Source: Spiroplasma endosymbiont of Asaphidion curtum (GTDB taxonomy: Bacteria; Bacillota_I; Bacilli_A; Mycoplasmatales; Nriv7). Taken from it: DNA of 64,000 bases. The notes under the pieces are model-generated. The model searched no databases and was not told where the DNA came from. It saw only the letters and a list, made by a program, of their open reading frames with translations. Below, in pieces: positions 2,869 to 54,248 of this stretch (the first letter of the stretch is position 1; every line of letters begins with the position of its first letter). The position numbers and the translations under genes are program-made. Location of the stretch: the NCBI RefSeq assembly GCF_964031085.1, contig NZ_OZ035001.1:248001-312000 (forward strand). The letters run 5' to 3'.

Positions 2869-3972
2869 ATTAATGAAAATATCCTTAAAATCAAGGCATT
2901 TAACAAAACCCTAATTGCTGGAAACAATTATTTACAATTATTACACGGTGAAAAGGAAATCTGAAAATATGATACTGCAAATGCTAACGATTATTATCTA
3001 ATTAAGTATCTTTTTGGAACCTTAAATTATCTTAATGTTAAATTTAGTTTTTTGAGATACGACTCTGAATTAAAAAATGACATTTACCTTTATTTTAAAA
3101 ACAATATTCCTAGTATTAACAGTAATAATTATAAAAATACTTTTGATGAAATTTACGAAATTCTTGGGAATTTCTTTGCCAGTTTATTTTATGCTACTTT
3201 TGATATGGACGAGAAAACTTATACCGAAATTGATTTTAAAGGTCTAGAAAACTATAATAAGGATTATTTTATTCAAATCGGTTTCTTTTATCGCTCATTA
3301 ATTACCTTTTATCCTAAAAAATATTTAATCAATGTTACTGGTAATTCGGAATTATTACTAAGAAGTTATTTCTTTACTTTTGATAAAAAAACGCACCAAG
3401 AGAATTATAATGCCTTTAAAAATAAAAATAGTATCTACCAAATTGACTTCAATGTGCTTAAATCTTACGATAATAAACTTATTACCATACTATCTGAACC
3501 AATAAATAGCAAAATTAATTATCTCAATACCGACATTGATATTCGTTATGGTATTAACATTTTTACCTTAACATTTCCACTTTATCATAAAGGAAACAAC
3601 TCTAACTACAGTTTTAAAATCTACGACTTTAATGTCTTAAATTCTACAGCCTTTATCCCTGACGGTTCAACCAACTCAGAATGAGACGACTTAATTCCGC
3701 CACCAAATTGCAAATATTCAGGGCGATGAATACCCACATTTAATGATATTGGATGTGCCATTCAAAATGCTGGTATCAAAATGCTAAACTGAATGCTTAC
3801 AGCTTCACAAGTCATTACGATTTTACGACCATTAGCGATTATTGCAAAAGCAACAGTTAACTTTTCAACTGCCATTTTTCCAGTTTTTAAAACAGTGCCA
3901 GCCTTTTACTATACCTTTCAATTTTTAATCGGTTTTGCCATTTTTCTAATGATTTTAAGAATTTTTGTATAA
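2869..3972 (+). pseudogene. Plectrovirus structural protein, C-terminal fragment (ORF1/P58-like)
   Basis: This continues the gene broken at 701. The frame is open from 2869 through N-E-N-I-L-K-I-K-A-F-N-K-T-L-I-A-G to UAA at 3970-3972, with UGA read as Trp at 3682, 3727 and elsewhere. The last 80 residues contain two hydrophobic stretches (A-S-Q-V-I-T-I-L-R-P-L-A-I-I-A and F-Q-F-L-I-G-F-A-I-F-L-M-I-L-R-I), typical of a filamentous-phage membrane or minor coat protein. The fragment keeps normal-looking coding sequence, so the insertion is recent. Confidence 0.6.
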
Positions 3973-9820: not shown

Positions 9821-10902
9821 GCCAAATTGTAAAGTTAAGTGCAACTAAATTATTTTTCTAACCAAATATTCGATTGGTGAAAGATAATTTAGTATTTTTC
9901 TTGGTCTTTGGTTTAAAGACAATATAAATTTATGAACTGCATTTTTAGTAGTATTTGAAAAATTAAATTTTTTAGGAAATTTTTCTCTAATTAAACCATT
10001 AGTATTTTCATTAGTACCTCTTTGTCAAGGCGAATACGCATTAGCAAAATAAATTTTCACATTTAAATTTTTTTCAAGTTGTTGTCAATTAGAAAATTCT
10101 TTACCCCTATCAAATGTTATAGTCTTAACAAGATTATTTGGAAGAATTGATAAATAATGGCTAATGTTTTCGTTAACAACTTTAGTAGTTCTATTTTCAA
10201 CTAACATTGCTAAAGTAAATCTTGATGTTCTTTCAACTAAAGTTATTAAACATGATTTACTTTTACCTCGTGATGATACTACAGTATCACCTTCTCAATG
10301 ACCAACAGTTATACGATTATTAACATTAATATTTCGTTCTTTAATTGATTTACCATTAAATTTACCGCGATTTTCTTGAGATTTTCGTTTCTTACCTTTT
10401 CTTCTTAAATTTTTATTAGTAACTTTTTCAAGTAATCCAGAATAAATTCAATTGTAAATTGTTTTAAAACTAATAATTCATTCTTTATGAAAATTTTTAA
10501 TTCTGCCATAAATTTGTTCAGGCGATCAACCTAATAGTAATTTTTGTTGTACATATTTTACTAATTCTCTATTTTTAAACTTATGAAAATAAACATGTGA
10601 TTGTTTTCTGTTTTCTGCTTTATTTTGTGCAATTAATGAAAAATAATGATTACTATCTTTATTTCTATTGACTTCTCGAATAATAGTACTAATACTTCGA
10701 TTAAGATTTTTAGCTATTTCACTAATTTTTACTTTAAACTTCAATTGATTCTCAATATAAATTCTTTCATATATGCCAAGATGTTTGTAACCCATATAAA
10801 AACTCCTTGCTTTGTTTTTTCTAAAATAAACTTAGCATCATGAAATTTTTATATGAGATTTTTTGCAATTTTATTTACTTGCACTTACAAGTATAATTCA
10901 GC
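9821..10902 (-). mobile_element. IS30-family element, copy 2
   Basis: 1082 bp, inserted in IS-A with the 4-bp duplication ATTT. The intact target TGTATTTTTATG can be read at 21321-21332. Confidence 0.95.
9845..10795 (-). CDS. IS30 transposase
   Basis: A 316-residue DDE transposase. The N-terminal helix-turn-helix is at residues 20-42 (V-K-I-S-E-I-A-K-N-L-N-R-S). The catalytic triad lies in G-H-W-E-G-D (about residue 166), F-D-R-G-K-E-F (about 226) and N-E-N-T-N-G-L-I-R-E (about 260). UGA is Trp in L-L-G-W-S-P-E-Q. GCAAGGAG precedes ATG. The seven-A run missing a base in copy 1 is intact here, so it looks functional. Confidence 0.93.
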
Positions 10903-11633: not shown

Positions 11634-11887
11634 TTTGTATTTATCTAACATTTGTACTTCACCTAGGAAATAATATTATCAAAATAGTAGATAAAATTAA
11701 AGGTTATGTGCCAAGTCTATTTTAAAAATATTTGTTATGTGATAAAATTAATTTCCTAAATAAGAGTTTAGGTTGCTTTGCTATTAATAACCTTGTTGCT
11801 ACTGCTAATATTTTTTATTTTTATTTGTTTAACAATAATGCATATTTAATTTAATAAAATAACGAAAAAGAAAGGAACAATAGCAAA

Positions 11888-14317
11888 ATGAGAAAAAAAC
11901 TTGTAAGATTATTAGGAACAGTTGCAATAACAAGTAGTTGTATGCCAGCAGTTGTTGCTAATTATCCAATTCAAAAACAAAAAGAATTAAATAATTTAAT
12001 TCAAGAGCAAAAAGAAAAAAATAATCTAATACAAAAATATAATAGTTTATTAGATAAAAAAGATAATTCAAATTTGGAATTTATTAGTTCATATATTAAA
12101 AATAATGATTTTTATTTCTTGTATAAAAATATCGAAAATAATGAACTTTATCTTTATTCAAAAACAAATGAATCAGTGGAGCAGTTAAATAAAAGAACTT
12201 TTACTTTACCAAATGAATATAATTATTCATTAAATAATTTAATACGATTTTTAATCAATGAAAATGATATTTATTTTCTTTTAAATAATAGTATTTTTAG
12301 ATTTAATTTAAATGGTTCTTATATCAAAGATATTCATATAGGTGGTATTAAAAATTTTAATATTTCAAAAATTAAAACCAGCAAGGACAGTATTTATTTC
12401 TTATCAGGTGATAATATATTTAAGTATAATTTAAGAAATAGTAACAAAGATTATGCAGAAAATTTTTTTTCTGAAGAACAAATATTAGATTTTGATGTTA
12501 ATAATGAAAATGATGTTTATTTTGTTAGTCAGAAGAAAGATAAAAAATTTTCTTTTAATTTAAATATTTATTATCAAAGTCAGTTTCAACATTTTAACTT
12601 AGATTTTTTAAAACAAATTAATCAAAATTTAAATATAGAAGGAATTAAAATTGATAACAAAAGTAATATTTATCTTATTTCTTCAAAAGATTTTTTTAAT
12701 AAAGAATTGTATAAATTTTCTAATAATATAGTAAATAAAGATAACTGTGATAAATTTATCTTAAAACTAGGTTACTATGTTAAAAATATGTTTTTTGATA
12801 TTGAAAATAATATATATATTATATGTGAAGAGAAAATGTATTTTTTAAATGTAAATACAAAAGAATGAATTTTTCTTAAAAAAATAAAAAACAAATTAAG
12901 AAATATAAAAGAAGTTTTTTTTAGTAAAGAAAATATATATTTTGTTACTCAAAATAATATATATTATTTAGATTATAATAGTTTAAAAAACATGTTAATT
13001 ACAAAAAAACAATTAATTAAAGAAAAAAAAGATTTAGAAAATTCTTTTACAAAAGAATTAAAAGAAATTAATTTAAATTTACAAAATCTTTTAGAATCAA
13101 AATTTAAATTAAATAGTGAAATGTCAACAAAAAATATACTTTTTTTAATAAAAGAACAATTAAAATTAATAAAAGAAAATCTAGATAATAAAAATAAAGA
13201 AATAAATCAACTGGAAAGTAATTTAAACACACAATTAGATGAAAAACAACAAAAAATTGCGGAATTAACTAATGAAATAAATCAACTGGAAAGTAATCTA
13301 AACACACAATTAGATGAAAAACAACAAAAAATCGCGGAATTAGAAGTTGAATTAAAAACAGCAAAATTAGAAAAAAATAGTTTAAATGATACTTTAGAAA
13401 CTTTAAATAATGAAATTGAATTTTTATTAGATAATGATGTTAGTTCTTTTAAAAATATATCTTTAACAGAATTAAATGAAAATTTAAATCAATCTCTTTT
13501 TATGTTAAAGGTAAAAATTCAAAATATGGCGAAAGATTTAGATGATAAAAATAGACAAATAGCAGAATTAGAAAAAAATGAAGGTAAAAAAATAAATAAA
13601 CTAAATAATGAAATAAATTTATCAAAAGTTTTCATTACTTCCTTGCAAGACAAGTTGCGCAATAGTGAAAATAATGAAAAAATGATGGAAAATTTACAAA
13701 GAAATATAAATAATAGAAACAATAAAATAGCAGAACTAAAAAATGAACTAAATACAAAATTAGATGAAAAACAACAAAAAATCGCGGAATTAACTAATGA
13801 AATAAAAACATTACAAGAAAAGATCGAAATTGAAAATAATAAGGAAAATCAATTAAATATAGTAATATCTCAATTAGAAAAAAGTGTTGAAAATTTACAG
13901 AAGGATTTAGATGATAAAAATAGGGAAATAAATCAAGTAAAAAGTAGTTTAAATACAAAATTAGATGAAAAACAACAGAAAATAACGGAATTAACTGGTG
14001 AAATAGAATCCTTACAAGAAAAATTAGCAGTTACTCAAAATGATGAAAATACATTAAGCAAAAAAATAACAGAATTGGAATTGACAAATCAACAATTAAA
14101 CAAAAAAATAGCAGAAGTGGAATTGACAAATCACCAATTAAACGAAAAAATAGCAGAATTGGAATTAACAAATCAACAATTAAATAATTTTTTAAATAAA
14201 ATCAGTGAAGATCTTTTTAGTGAGCAAGAAATAAAAAAATTCAAAACTGATGATGAAAGAAATAAAGCAATATTAGGAAAAATAAAAAGTCTTTTATCTT
14301 TTAATGATGGTTATTAA
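11888..14317 (+). CDS. Secreted repeat-propeller protein with long C-terminal coiled coil
   Basis: An 809-residue protein of no family I can name. Residues 1-24 (M-R-K-K-L-V-R-L-L-G...V-V-A) form a signal peptide. Residues about 60-360 hold repeats of the form N-D-I-Y-F-L/N-N-I-Y-I-I, like blades of a beta-propeller. From about residue 370 to 780 it is a coiled coil with L-D-E-K-Q-Q-K-I-A-E-L present four times and a 14-residue unit E-L-T-N-Q-Q-L-N-K-K-I-A-E-x three times. UGA is Trp at 12866. AGAAAGGAAC precedes ATG. The 3' end overlaps the next gene by 14 bases, so the two are coupled. The likely place is the cell surface, possibly adhesion or scaffold; the function is inference. Confidence 0.8.
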
Positions 14318-15377
14318 AAACTTTAAAAAATTATTATATATTTTAAGTTTAGTTATTTTATTAATAATTGTCTTCATTAGTTTAATTTTAATGTTCTATA
14401 AAAATAATAATGATTTTAATAAAATAGACAAATTTCCAGTTTTAGCAAAAACAGAATGAGTTACTTATAATAATACAAATATTATTATTTCTCGTAATTT
14501 AATTAATAAGGAATTTAAAACAAAGGTATTTTTTTTAGATTTAAATAAACAGGAAATGACAAAAATTTCTTGAATAGAAAATAAACATATAACCTCACAT
14601 TTAGTACAAAATAATGATGTTTATTTTGGAACGAATAATGGTATGTATATTTTGAAACAAGGTGAAATAACACCATCTATATTAAAACAAACAGATTTTT
14701 ATATAAATGCAATTTCTGCGTTTGATAATAATGTTTATATTGGAACAGATAATGGATTATATAAATTAGACAATAATTTGAAAATTACTCAATTAAATGA
14801 TATTGGGGTTGATTTAATATATATTAAAAATGATGATGCTTTCTTTTTAAAATCTCGCGATAATTTATCGTTATTAAAACCAAATTTAAAATTAAATGAA
14901 GAAATAAAAAAAATAAAAATAGTAAATAAACATTTAATTACTAATTTTAAAACCGCTAATTTATATTTTGGAACAAAGGAAGGGGCTTATGTTCTTAAAA
15001 ATGATAAAATAGAAAAAATATTAGATAAAAAAAATATTAATGGTATTTATGAATATAAGAATAATATTTATTTTGCAACAGAAGAAGGTGCTTTTGTTTT
15101 AAAACACAATGAAATTAAAGTTAAACAAATTGATGGAACAAATAACTTGTTTATTAAGTATTTTGATTTTGATGAAAATAATATTTATTTTGGTACTAAA
15201 GATAGTGTTTATATTTTAAAACAAGGTTCAAACTTAGTTGAAAAGATAAATATACCATTATTAACTATTAATGATGAAATAAAAAAAATAAAAATAAATA
15301 AAGATAAATTATTTTTACTAATAAAAACAAAATTAAATAATAAAGTAATTTCAAAAATATTAATTTTTAATTTATAG
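14304..15377 (+). CDS. Membrane-anchored repeat-propeller protein
   Basis: 357 residues. One transmembrane segment near the N-terminus (residues 9-32, L-L-Y-I-L-S-L-V-I-L-L-I-I-V-F-I) has Lys residues on its N-terminal side, so the bulk should face outward. The rest carries repeats V-Y-F-G-T-x-N-G-M-Y-I-L-K-Q-G, I-Y-I-G-T-D-N-G-L-Y-K-L, L-Y-F-G-T-K-E-G-A-Y-V-L-K and I-Y-F-G-T-K-D-S-V-Y-I-L-K-Q-G, similar to two-component-regulator-type propeller blades. It starts inside the end of the upstream gene. UGA is Trp at 14458 and 14572. ATG at 14307 is an alternative start. A homologue lies at 24426. Confidence 0.8.
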
Positions 15378-15409
15378 TAATGATAAAATCAAGATAAAAT
15401 AAATATTTA

Positions 15410-15440
15410 AAATAGTACTTTAAAGTACTATTTTTTATTT
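15410..15440 (+). terminator. Terminator of the propeller operon
   Basis: AAATAGTACTTTAAAGTACTATTT forms a perfect stem followed by T residues, 33 bases after the second gene's stop. Confidence 0.8.
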
Positions 15441-15561
15441 TGTCAAAGTAGAAATAAATAATAAAAAAGTTACTGAGTTGTTTAGAAATATTTTTATTAT
15501 TCAATTGCTGGAATTTAGAGCGGAGATTATAGTAAAAAAGGAGAGATATCATATTATATAT

Positions 15562-16643
15562 GCCAAATTGTAAAGTTAAGTGCAACTAAATTATTTTTCT
15601 AACCAAATATTCGATTGGTGAAAGATAATTTAGTATTTTTCTTGGTCTTTGGTTTAAAGACAATATAAATTTATGAACTGCATTTTTAGTAGTATTTGAA
15701 AAATTAAATTTTTTAGGAAATTTTTCTCTAATTAAACCATTAGTATTTTCATTAGTACCTCTTTGTCAAGGCGAATACGCATTAGCAAAATAAATTTTCA
15801 CATTTAAATTTTTTTCAAGTTGTTGTCAATTAGAAAATTCTTTACCCCTATCAAATGTTATAGTCTTAACAAGATTATTTGGAAGAATTGATAAATAATG
15901 GCTAATGTTTTCGTTAATAACTTTAGTAGTTCTATTTTCAACTAACATTGCTAAAGTAAATCTTGATGTTCTTTCAACTAAAGTTATTAAACATGATTTA
16001 CTTTTACCTCGTGATGATACTACAGTATCACCTTCTCAATGACCAACAGTTATACGATTATTAACATTAATATTTCGTTCTTTAATTGATTTACCATTAA
16101 ATTTACCGCGATTTTCTTGAGATTTTCGTTTCTTACCTTTTCTTCTTAAATTTTTATTAGTAACTTTTTCAAGTAATCCAGAATAAATTCAATTGTAAAT
16201 TGTTTTAAAACTAATAATTCATTCTTTATGAAAATTTTTAATTCTGCCATAAATTTGTTCAGGCGATCAACCTAATAGTAATTTTTGTTGTACATATTTT
16301 ACTAATTCTCTATTTTTAAACTTATGAAAATAAACATGTGATTGTTTTCTGTTTTCTGCTTTATTTTGTGCAATTAATGAAAAATAATGATTACTATCTT
16401 TATTTCTATTGACTTCTCGAATAATAGTACTAATACTTCGATTAAGATTTTTAGCTATTTCACTAATTTTTACTTTAAACTTCAATTGATTCTCAATATA
16501 AATTCTTTCATATATGCCAAGATGTTTGTAACCCATATAAAAACTCCTTGCTTTGTTTTTTCTAAAATAAACTTAGCATCATGAAATTTTTATATGAGAT
16601 TTTTTGCAATTTTATTTACTTGCACTTACAAGTATAATTCAGC
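15562..16643 (-). mobile_element. IS30-family element, copy 3
   Basis: 1082 bp, flanked by a 4-bp ATAT duplication. Removing it joins 15561 to sequence that continues the dprA frame without a stop. Confidence 0.93.
15586..16536 (-). CDS. IS30 transposase
   Basis: 316 residues, the same protein as at 9845-10795 in every stretch compared. The seven-base run is intact, the helix-turn-helix and all three DDE motifs are present, and the start is ATG after CAAGGAG. Confidence 0.92.
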
Positions 16644-16644
16644 A

Positions 16645-17403
16645 TATGATAATAAAAATAAATATTTTGTTATCAATTACCATGGTAATTGAGATAAAGT
16701 ATATGAAGCATTGGATAAAAAGGAAAAAAATGCGTTGGAAGAATTACAAAACATTGAAGATAAAATTGCTTGTCAATATTTAACAATTTTAAGTTCACAA
16801 TATCCGGCTGGTTTAAAAACAATTTATAAACCACCGTTTGTAATTTTTTATGAAGGAAATATTGATTTATTAAAATATTCTCAAAAAATTATTGCTATTA
16901 TAGGTTCACATTATCCTAATGTTTATATTAAAAAAGTTGCTAAGGATATGGTTCAGCAATTAGTTAATCATCAAAAAATTTTAATAACTTCATTTAATGC
17001 TGGGGTTGAAATATTAGTTCATCAATTAATTAAAGAAAATAATATTTCTGGAAATAGTGTGGTTATTATTAATGATAGTAATAATTATGATGAAAATCAA
17101 AAAGAATTGGTTTCGTATCTTAAAAGATATCATTTAGTAATTAGTGAATATCCGCTTAATATGACAAGAGAAAATATTAGTCCAGTGGATAGTAATGTTC
17201 AAAGAATCTTATTAGGATTATCAAAAGCATTATTAGTATTACCGTTTGGTGATGAAAAAATTGTTCATTCATTAGTAGACATTGCTTTTAATGAAAATAA
17301 AGATGTTTTTGCGGTTCCTAATCAAATTTATGAGGATTTTGCTACTAATAATCTTATTAAAAATAATGCTAAATTAGTGCAAACTATTGATGATATTTTA
17401 TAA
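16645..17403 (+). pseudogene. dprA: DNA processing protein DprA, 5' end disrupted by IS30
   Basis: DprA loads RecA on incoming single-stranded DNA. The frame from 16645 reads V-I-N-Y-H-G-N-W(UGA)-D-K-V-Y-E-A-L, typical of the DprA start region, then a Rossmann-like core with I-A-I-I-G-S-H and G-L-S-K-A-L-L-V-L-P-F-G. The usual S-G-x-A-x-G-I-D is degraded to S-F-N-A-G-V-E. No in-frame ATG precedes; a TTG at 16711 could start a shorter form. Across the IS30, the frame is open back to 15427 (F-V-K-V-E-I-N-N-K-K). About 250 residues remain. It lies upstream of topA as usual. I call it disrupted, with a small chance that it is still translated. Confidence 0.75.
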
Positions 17404-24253: not shown

Positions 24254-24425
24254 AAGAGGATTTTTAAAAAAAGGATGATAAATTATAAAATAAAGCAGGA
24301 ATTTCTTAAAAATAATTTATAATTAAATTCCAAGGCAATGAGACTGTAGATTAATTTTTGGAGAAAGAAAAAGGTATTATTAATTTTATTAATTAGTAAA
24401 AGTTCACGAAAGGAATTTGATTAAT

Positions 24426-25044
24426 ATGAAAAAACTTTTAGGGTTATTAGGAACAATAACAATAGCAGGAAGTGGAATGTTGGGTATTGTTGGCAATGCT
24501 CCAGCTCCAGCAAAAAATGAAATTAATTATCAAAAAGAAGATAAAATTTTTAAAAAAATAAATGGAGTTGATTTAGGTGGCAGTTTTAGAATTGCTAATA
24601 ATCAAAATATTTACTTTGGAACTAGTCATGGTGCATATGTTTTAAAGCGGGGTGAAACAACTGCAAATAAAATAGACGAAATTACATCAAAAGTCTATTC
24701 AATAATAGTTGATGGTAAAGATAATGTCTATTTTGGTACAGAAAATGGTGCATATATTTTAAAACAAAAAGAAACAATTGCAACTAAAATTAATGGTATT
24801 ACTGATAATCATCATATACATTTAATTGCGGTGGATAATAGCGATAATGTATATATTGGAACAAGAAAGAATGCTTTTATTTTGAAGCAAGGTACAATAA
24901 TTCCGAGTAAAATAAATGGAATAAATACAGATGATAATGAGAATTTAGCTCAAATTGTTATTGATTTTGATAATAATGTTTTTTTAGAACATATGTAATA
25001 AACAACACAAATAATAATTATCCTAATAATAGTCTTTATATTTT
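24426..25044 (+). pseudogene. Secreted repeat-propeller protein, frameshifted and cut by IS30
   Basis: It starts M-K-K-L-L-G-L-L-G-T-I-T-I-A-G-S-G-M-L, a signal peptide, after CGAAAGGAA. Four repeats follow: N-I-Y-F-G-T-S-H-G-A-Y-V-L-K-R-G, N-V-Y-F-G-T-E-N-G-A-Y-I-L-K-Q, N-V-Y-I-G-T-R-K-N-A-F-I-L-K-Q-G and D-F-D-N-N-V-F-L. The frame stops at 24999. A one-base shift continues into Y-V-I-N-N-T-N-N-N-Y-P-N-N-S-L-Y-I-L, the next blade, until IS30 at 25045. It is a paralogue of the proteins at 11888 and 14304. TTG at 24417 is a less likely start. Confidence 0.75.
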
Positions 25045-46148: not shown

Positions 46149-47431
46149 ATGGTTAAAACAAATATTAGTTATACACACTTAACAAATCAAGAACTTAATA
46201 AATATCAAGATAAAGTTCATTCAATTCATAAAACAATGATTACTGAAAGGAAAGGTCTTGGCAGTATTTTTTTAGGTTGAGTTGATTCAAAAAATTATAA
46301 TAAAACTGAATGAGAAGCAATGAAAACCATTGCTAAACGATTAATTCCTGAAATTAAAGTTTTGATTGTTATTGGAATTGGTGGTTCTTATTTAGGCGCT
46401 AAAGCAGCTATTGATATGATTAAAGGATTATATTCCCAAGATTCATTAGAAATAATATTTGTTGGTAATACATTATCATCAACATATACTAATCAAGTTT
46501 TAGAATATGTTAAAGATAAGGAATTTGCTATTAATGTAATGTTATTTCTAAATCGGGAAGTACAACCGAACCAGCGATTGCTTTTCGTCTTTTTAGAGAT
46601 TTATTAGAACAACAAAAAGGTAAAGCAATTGCTAAAACAAGGATTATTGCTACTACTGATGCTAAAAATGGAATTTTAAAAAATTTAGCTGATAAAGAAG
46701 GTTATGAAACTTTAGTTATTCCTGATGATATTGGTGGCAGATTTTCAGTATTAACGCCTGTTGGTATTTTTGTAATGGCAATGGCAGGAATTGATATTGA
46801 TAAGGTTATGCTGGGAGCTAATCAAGCACATATAGATTTAAATAATGATACCTTGGAAAACCAAGCATATAAATATGCTGTCGTGCGAACAATATTACAT
46901 CAAGAAAAGCAATATCCTTTAGAAATGCTAGTTAGTTATGAAAGTCAGATGTCTAGTTTGGCTGAATGATGAAAACAGTTATTTGGTGAATCAGAAGGAA
47001 AAGATAGTAAAGGAATTTTACCTGCTAGTGTTAATTTTTCTACTGATTTACATTCCTTAGGACAATTTATTCAAGAGGGAAGTAAAGTTTTATTTGAAAC
47101 AGTTTTACAAGTTAAAAAACCACCTTTAGATGTTAAAATTGCTACTAATAGTGATGATTTAGATCAATTAAATTATTTAACTAATTATTCTTTACATCAA
47201 ATTAATGCTTTAGCTTTAGAAGGAACAATTGATGCTCATAGTAATGAGGGGAAAGTTCCTAATATTGTTTTAGAGTTAGAAACAATGGATGAAATAATGT
47301 TTGGTTACTTAGTATACTTTTTCTTTAAAGCTTGTGTAATGAGTGCTTATTTACTAGAAGTTAATCCTTTTAATCAACCAGGTGTTGAAGTATATAAGAA
47401 AAAAATGTTTAAGTTATTAGGTAAGAGTTAA
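46149..47431 (+). pseudogene. pgi: Glucose-6-phosphate isomerase, one-base frameshift
   Basis: Pgi interconverts glucose 6-phosphate and fructose 6-phosphate. The N-terminal part reads V-I-G-I-G-G-S-Y-L-G-A-K-A-A (about residue 77). The expected [16 protein letters not shown] is encoded, but one base is missing near 46543, so the frame shifts just before it and ends at 46607. The rest is open in the second frame with catalytic signatures ([21 protein letters not shown]) to UAA at 47431, about 427 residues if repaired. UGA is Trp at 46278 and elsewhere. A central glycolytic gene should not be dead, so sequencing error or a very recent mutation is likely. Confidence 0.88.
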
Positions 47432-53483: not shown

Positions 53484-53507
53484 CAAAAAAATAAAGTGAG
53501 GTGCAAG

Positions 53508-54248
53508 ATGAAATTTTGCAAATGAATAATAGAAAAAAATAACCATTTTATTGAATTGAATCGCACCTCATTTTTAATTTTGTGACATTGGGGAGCAATT
53601 TGATACATTTACAACGGTTATTTTAAAAACATTGTAAGCTATTTATTTTTAGCGGGTTGTATTTTAATTTTCCTTTTTAAAATCGGTAATTTAACACAAA
53701 TTAACAAAGTTATTAATTTCTTAAAAAACTCACCATTAAATATTGTGATTGGTTCATTAGGAACTGGAAAAACCGCTTTTCTAGTATACGCATCAAAATT
53801 ATTAAAAAAGAAGAAATATCACATCGCATCAACCTTTCCATTACTAGAAACCCAAAAATTAAGCTTAGGGCATATGGGATTGTTAGACTTTGATTATCCG
53901 GTATTGCCAGACAAAACCTTACTTTTATGAGATGAAACCAACTTATTTTTAGAAGGAACTGATTGAGAAAAAAATAATATCAAAAACGAAGAAACCGGTA
54001 TTCAAGAATATTTCGCTCTGGCACGGCATTTTGGTCATATTATTCTCGCTAGCGGTCAAAGAGATAAACATATTTGAGTTAAAGTTCGTGATATTGCCAA
54101 TAATGTGATTGTGGGCATTCGTAAAAAACCAGTTAATATTTTTCGTCCCTACTTAAAAGTTATCTATGGGACCTTTACTAGCATTGAAGAATATGAACGC
54201 TGACGAAACACCTTAATTGATGCTAAAAATGCTGAATTATACTTGTAA
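53508..54248 (+). pseudogene. Plectrovirus Zot-like assembly ATPase, 3' end cut by IS30
   Basis: A membrane-anchored P-loop protein. Residues 22-70 hold hydrophobic segments (L-F-L-A-G-C-I-L-I-F-L-F-K-I). Walker A is G-S-L-G-T-G-K-T (about residue 81) and a Walker B-like L-L-L-W(UGA)-D-E-T-N lies about residue 142. H-F-G-H-I-I-L-A-S-G-Q-R fits the Zot/p1 family sensor region. These ATPases drive filamentous phage assembly. At 54231 IS30 begins and the frame ends A-E-L-Y-L-stop inside it, so the C-terminus is lost. Confidence 0.75.

What the first reader, a model, noticed from the sequence alone, without database searches (positions are those of the whole stretch)
11888..15377. Two-gene surface operon: secreted propeller-plus-coiled-coil protein and membrane-anchored propeller partner
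Two overlapping genes encode, first, an 809-residue secreted protein with propeller-like repeats and a 400-residue coiled coil built from repeated L-D-E-K-Q-Q-K-I-A-E-L units, and second, a 357-residue protein with one membrane anchor and Y-F-G-T-x-x-G-x-Y-x-L-K-x-G repeats. They share a terminator and sit inside a normally tight rbgA-rnhB-dprA locus. A shared repeat type with different anchoring suggests partners at the cell surface, perhaps adhesion or host contact. I know no named system like this.
Basis: partly seen in the sequence, partly recalled or inferred. Interest (0 to 1): 0.8.

Follow-up and report, generated by a model that had tools for sequence, protein, structure and literature searches.

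The report
Divergent sarpin-type Spiroplasma surface gene pair
Two neighbouring genes of an insertion-sequence-rich Spiroplasma encode surface proteins built on the same propeller repeat as the known Spiroplasma citri insect-cell adhesins, one membrane-anchored and one secreted with a long rod, so they are an unusual branch of a known adhesin family rather than an unknown system.

Summary
Under code 4, genes at 11888-14317 (809 aa) and 14304-15377 (357 aa) overlap by 14 nt and share a strong terminator hairpin. Gene 1 has a signal peptide, a predicted seven-bladed propeller and a long heptad coiled coil. Gene 2 has one N-terminal membrane anchor and a predicted eight-bladed propeller. The same pair, with the same overlap, occurs in two of the four other genomes held for this genus. 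In one of those gene 2 is broken.

'No named system' is wrong. Gene 2's repeats are sarpin repeats, those of the S. citri adhesins SARP1/ScARP: a profile built from ScARP3d and two Nesidiocoris-symbiont homologues hits gene 2 at E = 4e-33. In ScARP3d the repeat domain mediates entry into insect cells (PMC3485318). Gene 1's propeller is a very diverged relative. Neither gene has the other ScARP hallmarks, so neither is a ScARP.

The best reading is a chromosomal, clade-restricted adhesin pair facing the arthropod host. That gene 2 tethers gene 1 is only inferred, and the broken gene 2 in one relative argues that it is not obligatory. rnhB is not at this locus, and the IS30 copy downstream of the pair is a later insertion.

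The parts
11766..11887 (+). Leader region conserved with the pair in both relatives; contains a Shine-Dalgarno-like AAAGGA just upstream of gene 1
   Evidence: nearly identical upstream of gene 1 in G001 and G004 apart from one 6-nt gap
11888..14317 (+). Gene 1: 809-aa exported protein; signal peptide about 1-24, helix 28-54, propeller about 63-362, coiled-coil rod 363-776, C-terminal helix 790-807
   Evidence: orthologues of 947 aa (L048) and 841 aa (L049)
14304..15377 (+). Gene 2: 357-aa N-terminally anchored sarpin-repeat propeller (predicted eight blades), expected outside the cell by positive-inside charge
   Evidence: 355-aa orthologue in L048; pseudogene in L049
14304..14317 (+). 14-nt gene overlap (gene 2 in the +1 frame), same overlap in both relatives; compatible with translational coupling
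15410..15441 (+). Shared intrinsic terminator: hairpin with T tract
   Evidence: z -4.6; conserved in G001
9845..10795 (-). IS30 family transposase, left of the pair (mobile background, not part of the system)
15586..16536 (-). IS30 family transposase inserted between the pair and dprA; the G001 junction lacks it
16644..17403 (+). dprA remnant lacking its own 5' end; in G001 a dprA remnant borders the pair directly, without IS30

Best explanation
The pair is a chromosomal adhesin operon of one Spiroplasma clade, descended from the sarpin-repeat (beta-propeller) surface family whose best-studied members are the S. citri ScARP adhesins. Gene 2 is held in the membrane by an uncleaved N-terminal anchor and displays a predicted eight-bladed sarpin propeller outside. 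Gene 1 is exported through a cleaved signal peptide and forms a propeller head on a coiled-coil rod of about 414 residues, roughly 60 nm if fully extended. The propellers most likely bind arthropod host molecules. The rod would present its head away from the wall-less cell, and gene 2 may help hold the rod protein at the surface. Shown: gene order, export signals, repeats, coiled coil, family relationship, conservation. Inferred: host binding (from the tested ScARP3d repeat domain). Speculative: binding of gene 1 by gene 2.
For: A profile built from 16 ScARP3d and Nesidiocoris-symbiont sarpin repeats hits gene 2 at E = 3.8e-33 with five repeats, and not a shuffled copy (0.09) or two housekeeping proteins (0.98 and 0.8). 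Direct BLASTP to ScARP3d gives 30% identity, E = 2e-23. In the plasmid collection all 28 records hit are Spiroplasma, several annotated as adhesins. Published: the ScARP3d repeat domain is surface-exposed, makes beads enter leafhopper cells and reduces entry when added free (PMC3485318). Structure models and Foldseek support both propellers. The pair, its overlap and its leader are conserved in two other genomes. dN/dS is about 0.9-1.3 for gene 1's propeller and 0.3-0.5 for its rod, against 0.08-0.12 for rbgA and topA, which fits a host-facing head on a constrained rod.
Against: Gene 1's propeller scores only E = 0.011 with the sarpin profile, and its model confidence is modest (about 46-80 in the propeller, pTM 0.41). 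Neither protein has the ScARP conserved region, C-terminal anchor or plasmid setting. Gene 2 is a pseudogene in G004 while gene 1 is intact, so gene 2 is not essential to gene 1. No expression, localisation or binding data exist. The dN/dS contrast within gene 1 reaches significance in only one of two comparisons (p 0.12 and 0.008).
Confidence: 0.62

Rival explanations
1. Gene 1 is a released effector rather than an adhesin: the propeller is a host-binding carrier and the coiled coil is an effector part. Gene 2 is an unrelated surface adhesin that happens to be co-transcribed.
For: Gene 1 has no membrane anchor. Sarpin-like propellers in related genomes carry very different C-terminal parts: a short helix, a spiralin domain with a membrane segment, or unassigned domains, as if the propeller were a shared front end. 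Gene 1 stays intact where gene 2 is broken.
Against: A pure coiled coil has no recognised effector domain. The overlapping gene order is conserved in all three genomes.
Confidence: 0.2
2. The two proteins form a structural surface layer or fibre (self-associating rods with propeller ends) that serves cell shape or cell-cell contact, not host binding.
For: Long coiled coil of variable length: 809, 841 and 947 aa, with in-frame repeat gains of 28 and 134 residues.
Against: The nearest studied propellers are adhesins (PMC3485318). Elevated dN/dS in the head is unusual for a structural part. The pair is absent from G002 and G003, so it is dispensable for shape.
Confidence: 0.1
3. The pair is cargo of an IS30 composite transposon and has no lasting role.
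For: IS30 copies in the same orientation lie on both sides. Synonymous divergence of gene 1 between own and G001 is less than half that of neighbouring genes (0.053 against 0.119, p = 0.0006), which suggests exchange between lineages.
Against: In G001 the pair borders dprA with no IS30 between, so the right-hand copy came later. Both frames are intact in own and G001.
Confidence: 0.05

Closest known systems
Spiroplasma citri adhesion-related proteins (SARP1/P89, ScARP2-5; sarpin repeats)
   Same: Repeat unit of about 39-42 residues with the NNIYFGTxxGxYxLKxG pattern (same Pfam Reg_prop blade in ScARP3d); surface type; N-terminal export signal; Spiroplasma
   Different: ScARPs are plasmid genes next to conjugation genes, with a 330-aa conserved region and a C-terminal membrane anchor. 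The pair is chromosomal, lacks both, and adds an N-terminal anchor (gene 2) or a coiled-coil rod (gene 1)
Other sarpin-like secreted proteins and lipoproteins of the same genome and genus (L051:8290-9891, L052:7544-8758, L053:6675-7757, L050:5247-7526)
   Same: Same signal-peptide type and propeller repeats
   Different: No long coiled coil and no N-anchored propeller partner
Reg_prop sensor propellers (BT4663, BT4673)
   Same: Same propeller superfamily by sequence and fold
   Different: No histidine kinase or response regulator parts
Mycoplasma 'helix-rich protein' (TIGR04523)
   Same: Long charged coiled coil
   Different: Score 28.7 against a cutoff of 270; only generic coiled-coil likeness

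Membership tests
Sarpin-repeat proteins (gene 2) | Tandem repeats of 39-42 residues of the sarpin type | tested here: met
   Profile from known sarpin repeats: E 3.8e-33, five repeats; BLASTP to ScARP3d 2e-23
Sarpin-repeat proteins (gene 1) | Tandem repeats of 39-42 residues of the sarpin type | tested here: inconclusive
   E = 0.011, six weak repeats at 122-363; shuffled copy 15; profile-profile probability 98% against the family, partly from the signal peptide
ScARP adhesins | Cleavable N-terminal signal peptide | tested here: inconclusive
   Gene 1: yes by sequence (VVA-N at 22-25, same layout as paralogues; lipid attachment at Cys18 is not excluded). Gene 2: long uncleaved-type anchor. No signal-peptide predictor was available
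ScARP adhesins | Central conserved region of about 330 aa | tested here: not met
   Gene 2 ends after the propeller; gene 1 is coiled coil there; no significant match outside the repeats
ScARP adhesins | C-terminal membrane helix with a basic tail | tested here: not met
   No C-terminal membrane-grade hydrophobic segment in either
ScARP adhesins | Plasmid-borne next to conjugation genes | tested here: not met
   Chromosomal, next to dprA-topA; the ScARP setting is seen in L089 and L090
ScARP adhesins | Repeat domain binds insect cells and promotes entry | not testable with these tools
   Shown for ScARP3d only (PMC3485318)
Reg_prop two-component sensors | Kinase and receiver domains | tested here: not met
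   None found

The most novel reading that the evidence does not exclude
A two-protein adhesin in which a membrane-anchored propeller captures a secreted propeller-on-a-rod of variable length, forming a long surface probe on a wall-less endosymbiont. This would be a way of building an adhesive stalk without a cell wall or a C-terminal anchor.
Probability: 0.2. Interest if true: 0.6.

Novelty: new variant of a known kind. Interest (0 to 1): 0.38.

Why it matters
It ties an apparently unknown surface operon of a probably arthropod-associated Spiroplasma to an adhesin family with experimental support. Sarpin repeats match a propeller family in Pfam (Reg_prop), and the propeller model of gene 2 gives the ScARP repeat domain a testable fold. 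I found no paper in the held library that calls sarpin repeats a propeller, though NCBI already labels one S. citri plasmid homologue a propeller-domain protein. The paralogues also suggest that such propellers are reused as a common front end on different C-terminal parts in this genus.

Tried and rejected
IS30 composite transposon: rejected because the G001 junction between the pair and dprA lacks IS30. A split single gene or programmed frameshift: unlikely, because gene 2's frame opens only six codons before its ATG and the product carries its own membrane anchor. Viral contigs: no relative in two scans. Plasmid search with the gene 1 propeller: nothing. The coiled coil has no second copy in the genome. 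PDB sequence search with gene 2: none. Rfam: none. The C-terminal part of L050:5247-7526 looked to me like an aerolysin-type pore former, but Pfam and the PDB sequences gave no support, so I do not claim it.

Full report
Observation. Both genes are present as described. Gene 1 spans 11888-14317 and encodes 809 residues; gene 2 spans 14304-15377 and encodes 357. They overlap by 14 nt. The terminator at about 15410-15441 folds far better than shuffles (z -4.6). The long minus-strand ORF at 12973-14244 is a shadow of the repetitive coding strand. rnhB is not in this locus; the only RNase HII gene found is at genome position 443671-444279. The neighbourhood is rplS-rbgA, then insertion-sequence remnants and IS30, the pair, a second IS30, a truncated dprA, and topA.

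Anatomy of gene 1. The N-terminus MRKKLVRLLGTVAITSSCMPAVVA-NYP has the layout of the signal peptides of its secreted paralogues. Cys18 is conserved in three of three orthologues, so a lipoprotein cannot be excluded. AlphaFold on ten aligned sequences gives a helix at 28-54, about 28 strands at 63-362 and helices over 363-776, with moderate confidence. Foldseek places the strand region on propellers such as the seven-bladed clathrin terminal domain and Reg_prop sensors. The rest is a coiled coil: its hydrophobic pattern peaks at 3.5 residues (power 23.1; maximum of 200 shuffles 11.2). At 0.15 nm per residue (textbook value), 414 residues give about 60 nm if fully extended. Orthologues are 841 and 947 aa. 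The differences inside the rod are in-frame repeat gains of 28 residues (four heptads) and 134 residues (two units of 67).

Anatomy of gene 2. One strongly hydrophobic segment (about 10-31) follows a basic N-terminus, so the remainder should face outward (positive-inside rule). The model is an all-beta propeller (mean pLDDT 75, pTM 0.69). Its best PDB matches are the eight-bladed Fbw7 and Tako8.

What it belongs to. Pfam's Reg_prop blade just passes its cutoff in gene 2 and scores well in paralogues. In the plasmid collection gene 2 hits 28 records, all Spiroplasma, several annotated as adhesin or adhesion-related protein. Among them are pSci2 and pSci3 of S. citri. pSci2 carries ScARP3d (PMC2386487), whose sarpin repeat domain is surface-exposed, makes coated beads enter leafhopper cells and competes with entry (PMC3485318). 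A profile made from 16 sarpin repeats of ScARP3d and two Nesidiocoris-symbiont homologues scores gene 2 at 3.8e-33 and gene 1 at 0.011. Shuffled copies score 0.09 and 15, and two housekeeping proteins 0.98 and 0.8. BLASTP of gene 2 to ScARP3d gives 2e-23. Gene 2 is therefore a sarpin-repeat protein. Gene 1 is probably a far-diverged propeller of the same stock; a profile comparison gives 98% probability, but part of that comes from the signal peptide. Neither is a ScARP, since the conserved region, C-terminal anchor and plasmid context are all missing.

Distribution. Five genomes of the genus are held. The pair is in own, G001 and G004, and absent from G002 and G003. None of the 54 relatives outside the genus has gene 1, and only two have weak propeller matches to gene 2. 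In G001 the pair lies directly before dprA remnants with no IS30 between, while rbgA is elsewhere. In G004 a block matching own 11719-15409 sits in a different place, beside virus-like gene remnants. In G004 gene 2 is broken by in-frame stops and frame changes while gene 1 is open. G002 and G003 have rbgA followed by dprA fragments and topA without the pair.

Evolution. Within gene 1, dN/dS of the propeller is 0.92 and 1.3 and of the rod 0.40 and 0.33 (p 0.12 and 0.008). For rbgA and topA it is 0.12 and 0.08. This fits a fast-changing, host-facing head on a constrained rod, but the counts are small and relaxed constraint is not excluded. Between own and G001 the synonymous divergence of gene 1 (0.053) is less than half that of four housekeeping genes (0.119, p 0.0006). 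For G001 against G004 the figures are 0.062 and 0.163 (p 2e-6), and for own against G004 they do not differ. A sarpin-like lipoprotein elsewhere in the genome, with the same third-position composition, shows dS 0.186 between own and G001, against 0.055 and 0.053 for the pair. The simplest explanation is exchange of the pair between lineages, but this is an inference from few genomes.

How it most likely works. Shown: export and anchoring signals, propeller repeats, heptad rod, operon layout and conservation of the pair. Inferred from ScARP3d: the propellers bind arthropod host surfaces. Speculative: gene 2 holds gene 1 at the cell. The 14-nt overlap favours coupled synthesis of the two proteins, but loss of gene 2 in G004 argues against strict dependence. 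The main rival is that gene 1 is a released factor.

Novelty. The repeats, the adhesion role and the fold class are known or already annotated. New here, as far as the held library shows, are the two-gene layout, the propeller-on-rod architecture and its restriction to one clade. I score this as a new variant of a known kind with moderate interest.

Noticed in passing
window 24417-24998: A second sarpin-repeat gene (secreted type, Reg_prop E 1.6e-6) ends about 70 bases before an IS30 copy and appears cut short by it.
   Followed up: partly
L077:3863-5185: A 440-aa protein combines sarpin propeller repeats with a Pfam spiralin domain (E 4e-8) and a C-terminal membrane segment, joining two known Spiroplasma surface protein types in one gene.
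   Followed up: partly
L050:5247-7526 and L075:4604-7687: Sarpin-like propellers fused to C-terminal domains that resemble each other in part and match nothing in Pfam; the L050 domain also matches no PDB sequence.
   Followed up: partly
L050:7526-8020 and L076:5429-7183: The same unassigned domain of about 110 aa is a separate secreted protein in one place and the C-terminus of a sarpin propeller protein in the other, which suggests domain shuffling.
   Followed up: no
L074:17348-18517: A sarpin lipoprotein contains several identical adjacent repeats, pointing to recent repeat expansion.
   Followed up: no
window 46149-47431: The glucose-6-phosphate isomerase gene appears split into two frames, possibly a pseudogene or a sequencing error.
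   Followed up: no
window 16644-17403: dprA lacks its start here and is fragmented or not found in the four other genomes, suggesting loss of this DNA-uptake gene across the group.
   Followed up: partly
window 53496-54248 and 3052-3972: Fragments resembling filamentous-virus (plectrovirus-type) assembly genes lie among IS elements.
   Followed up: no
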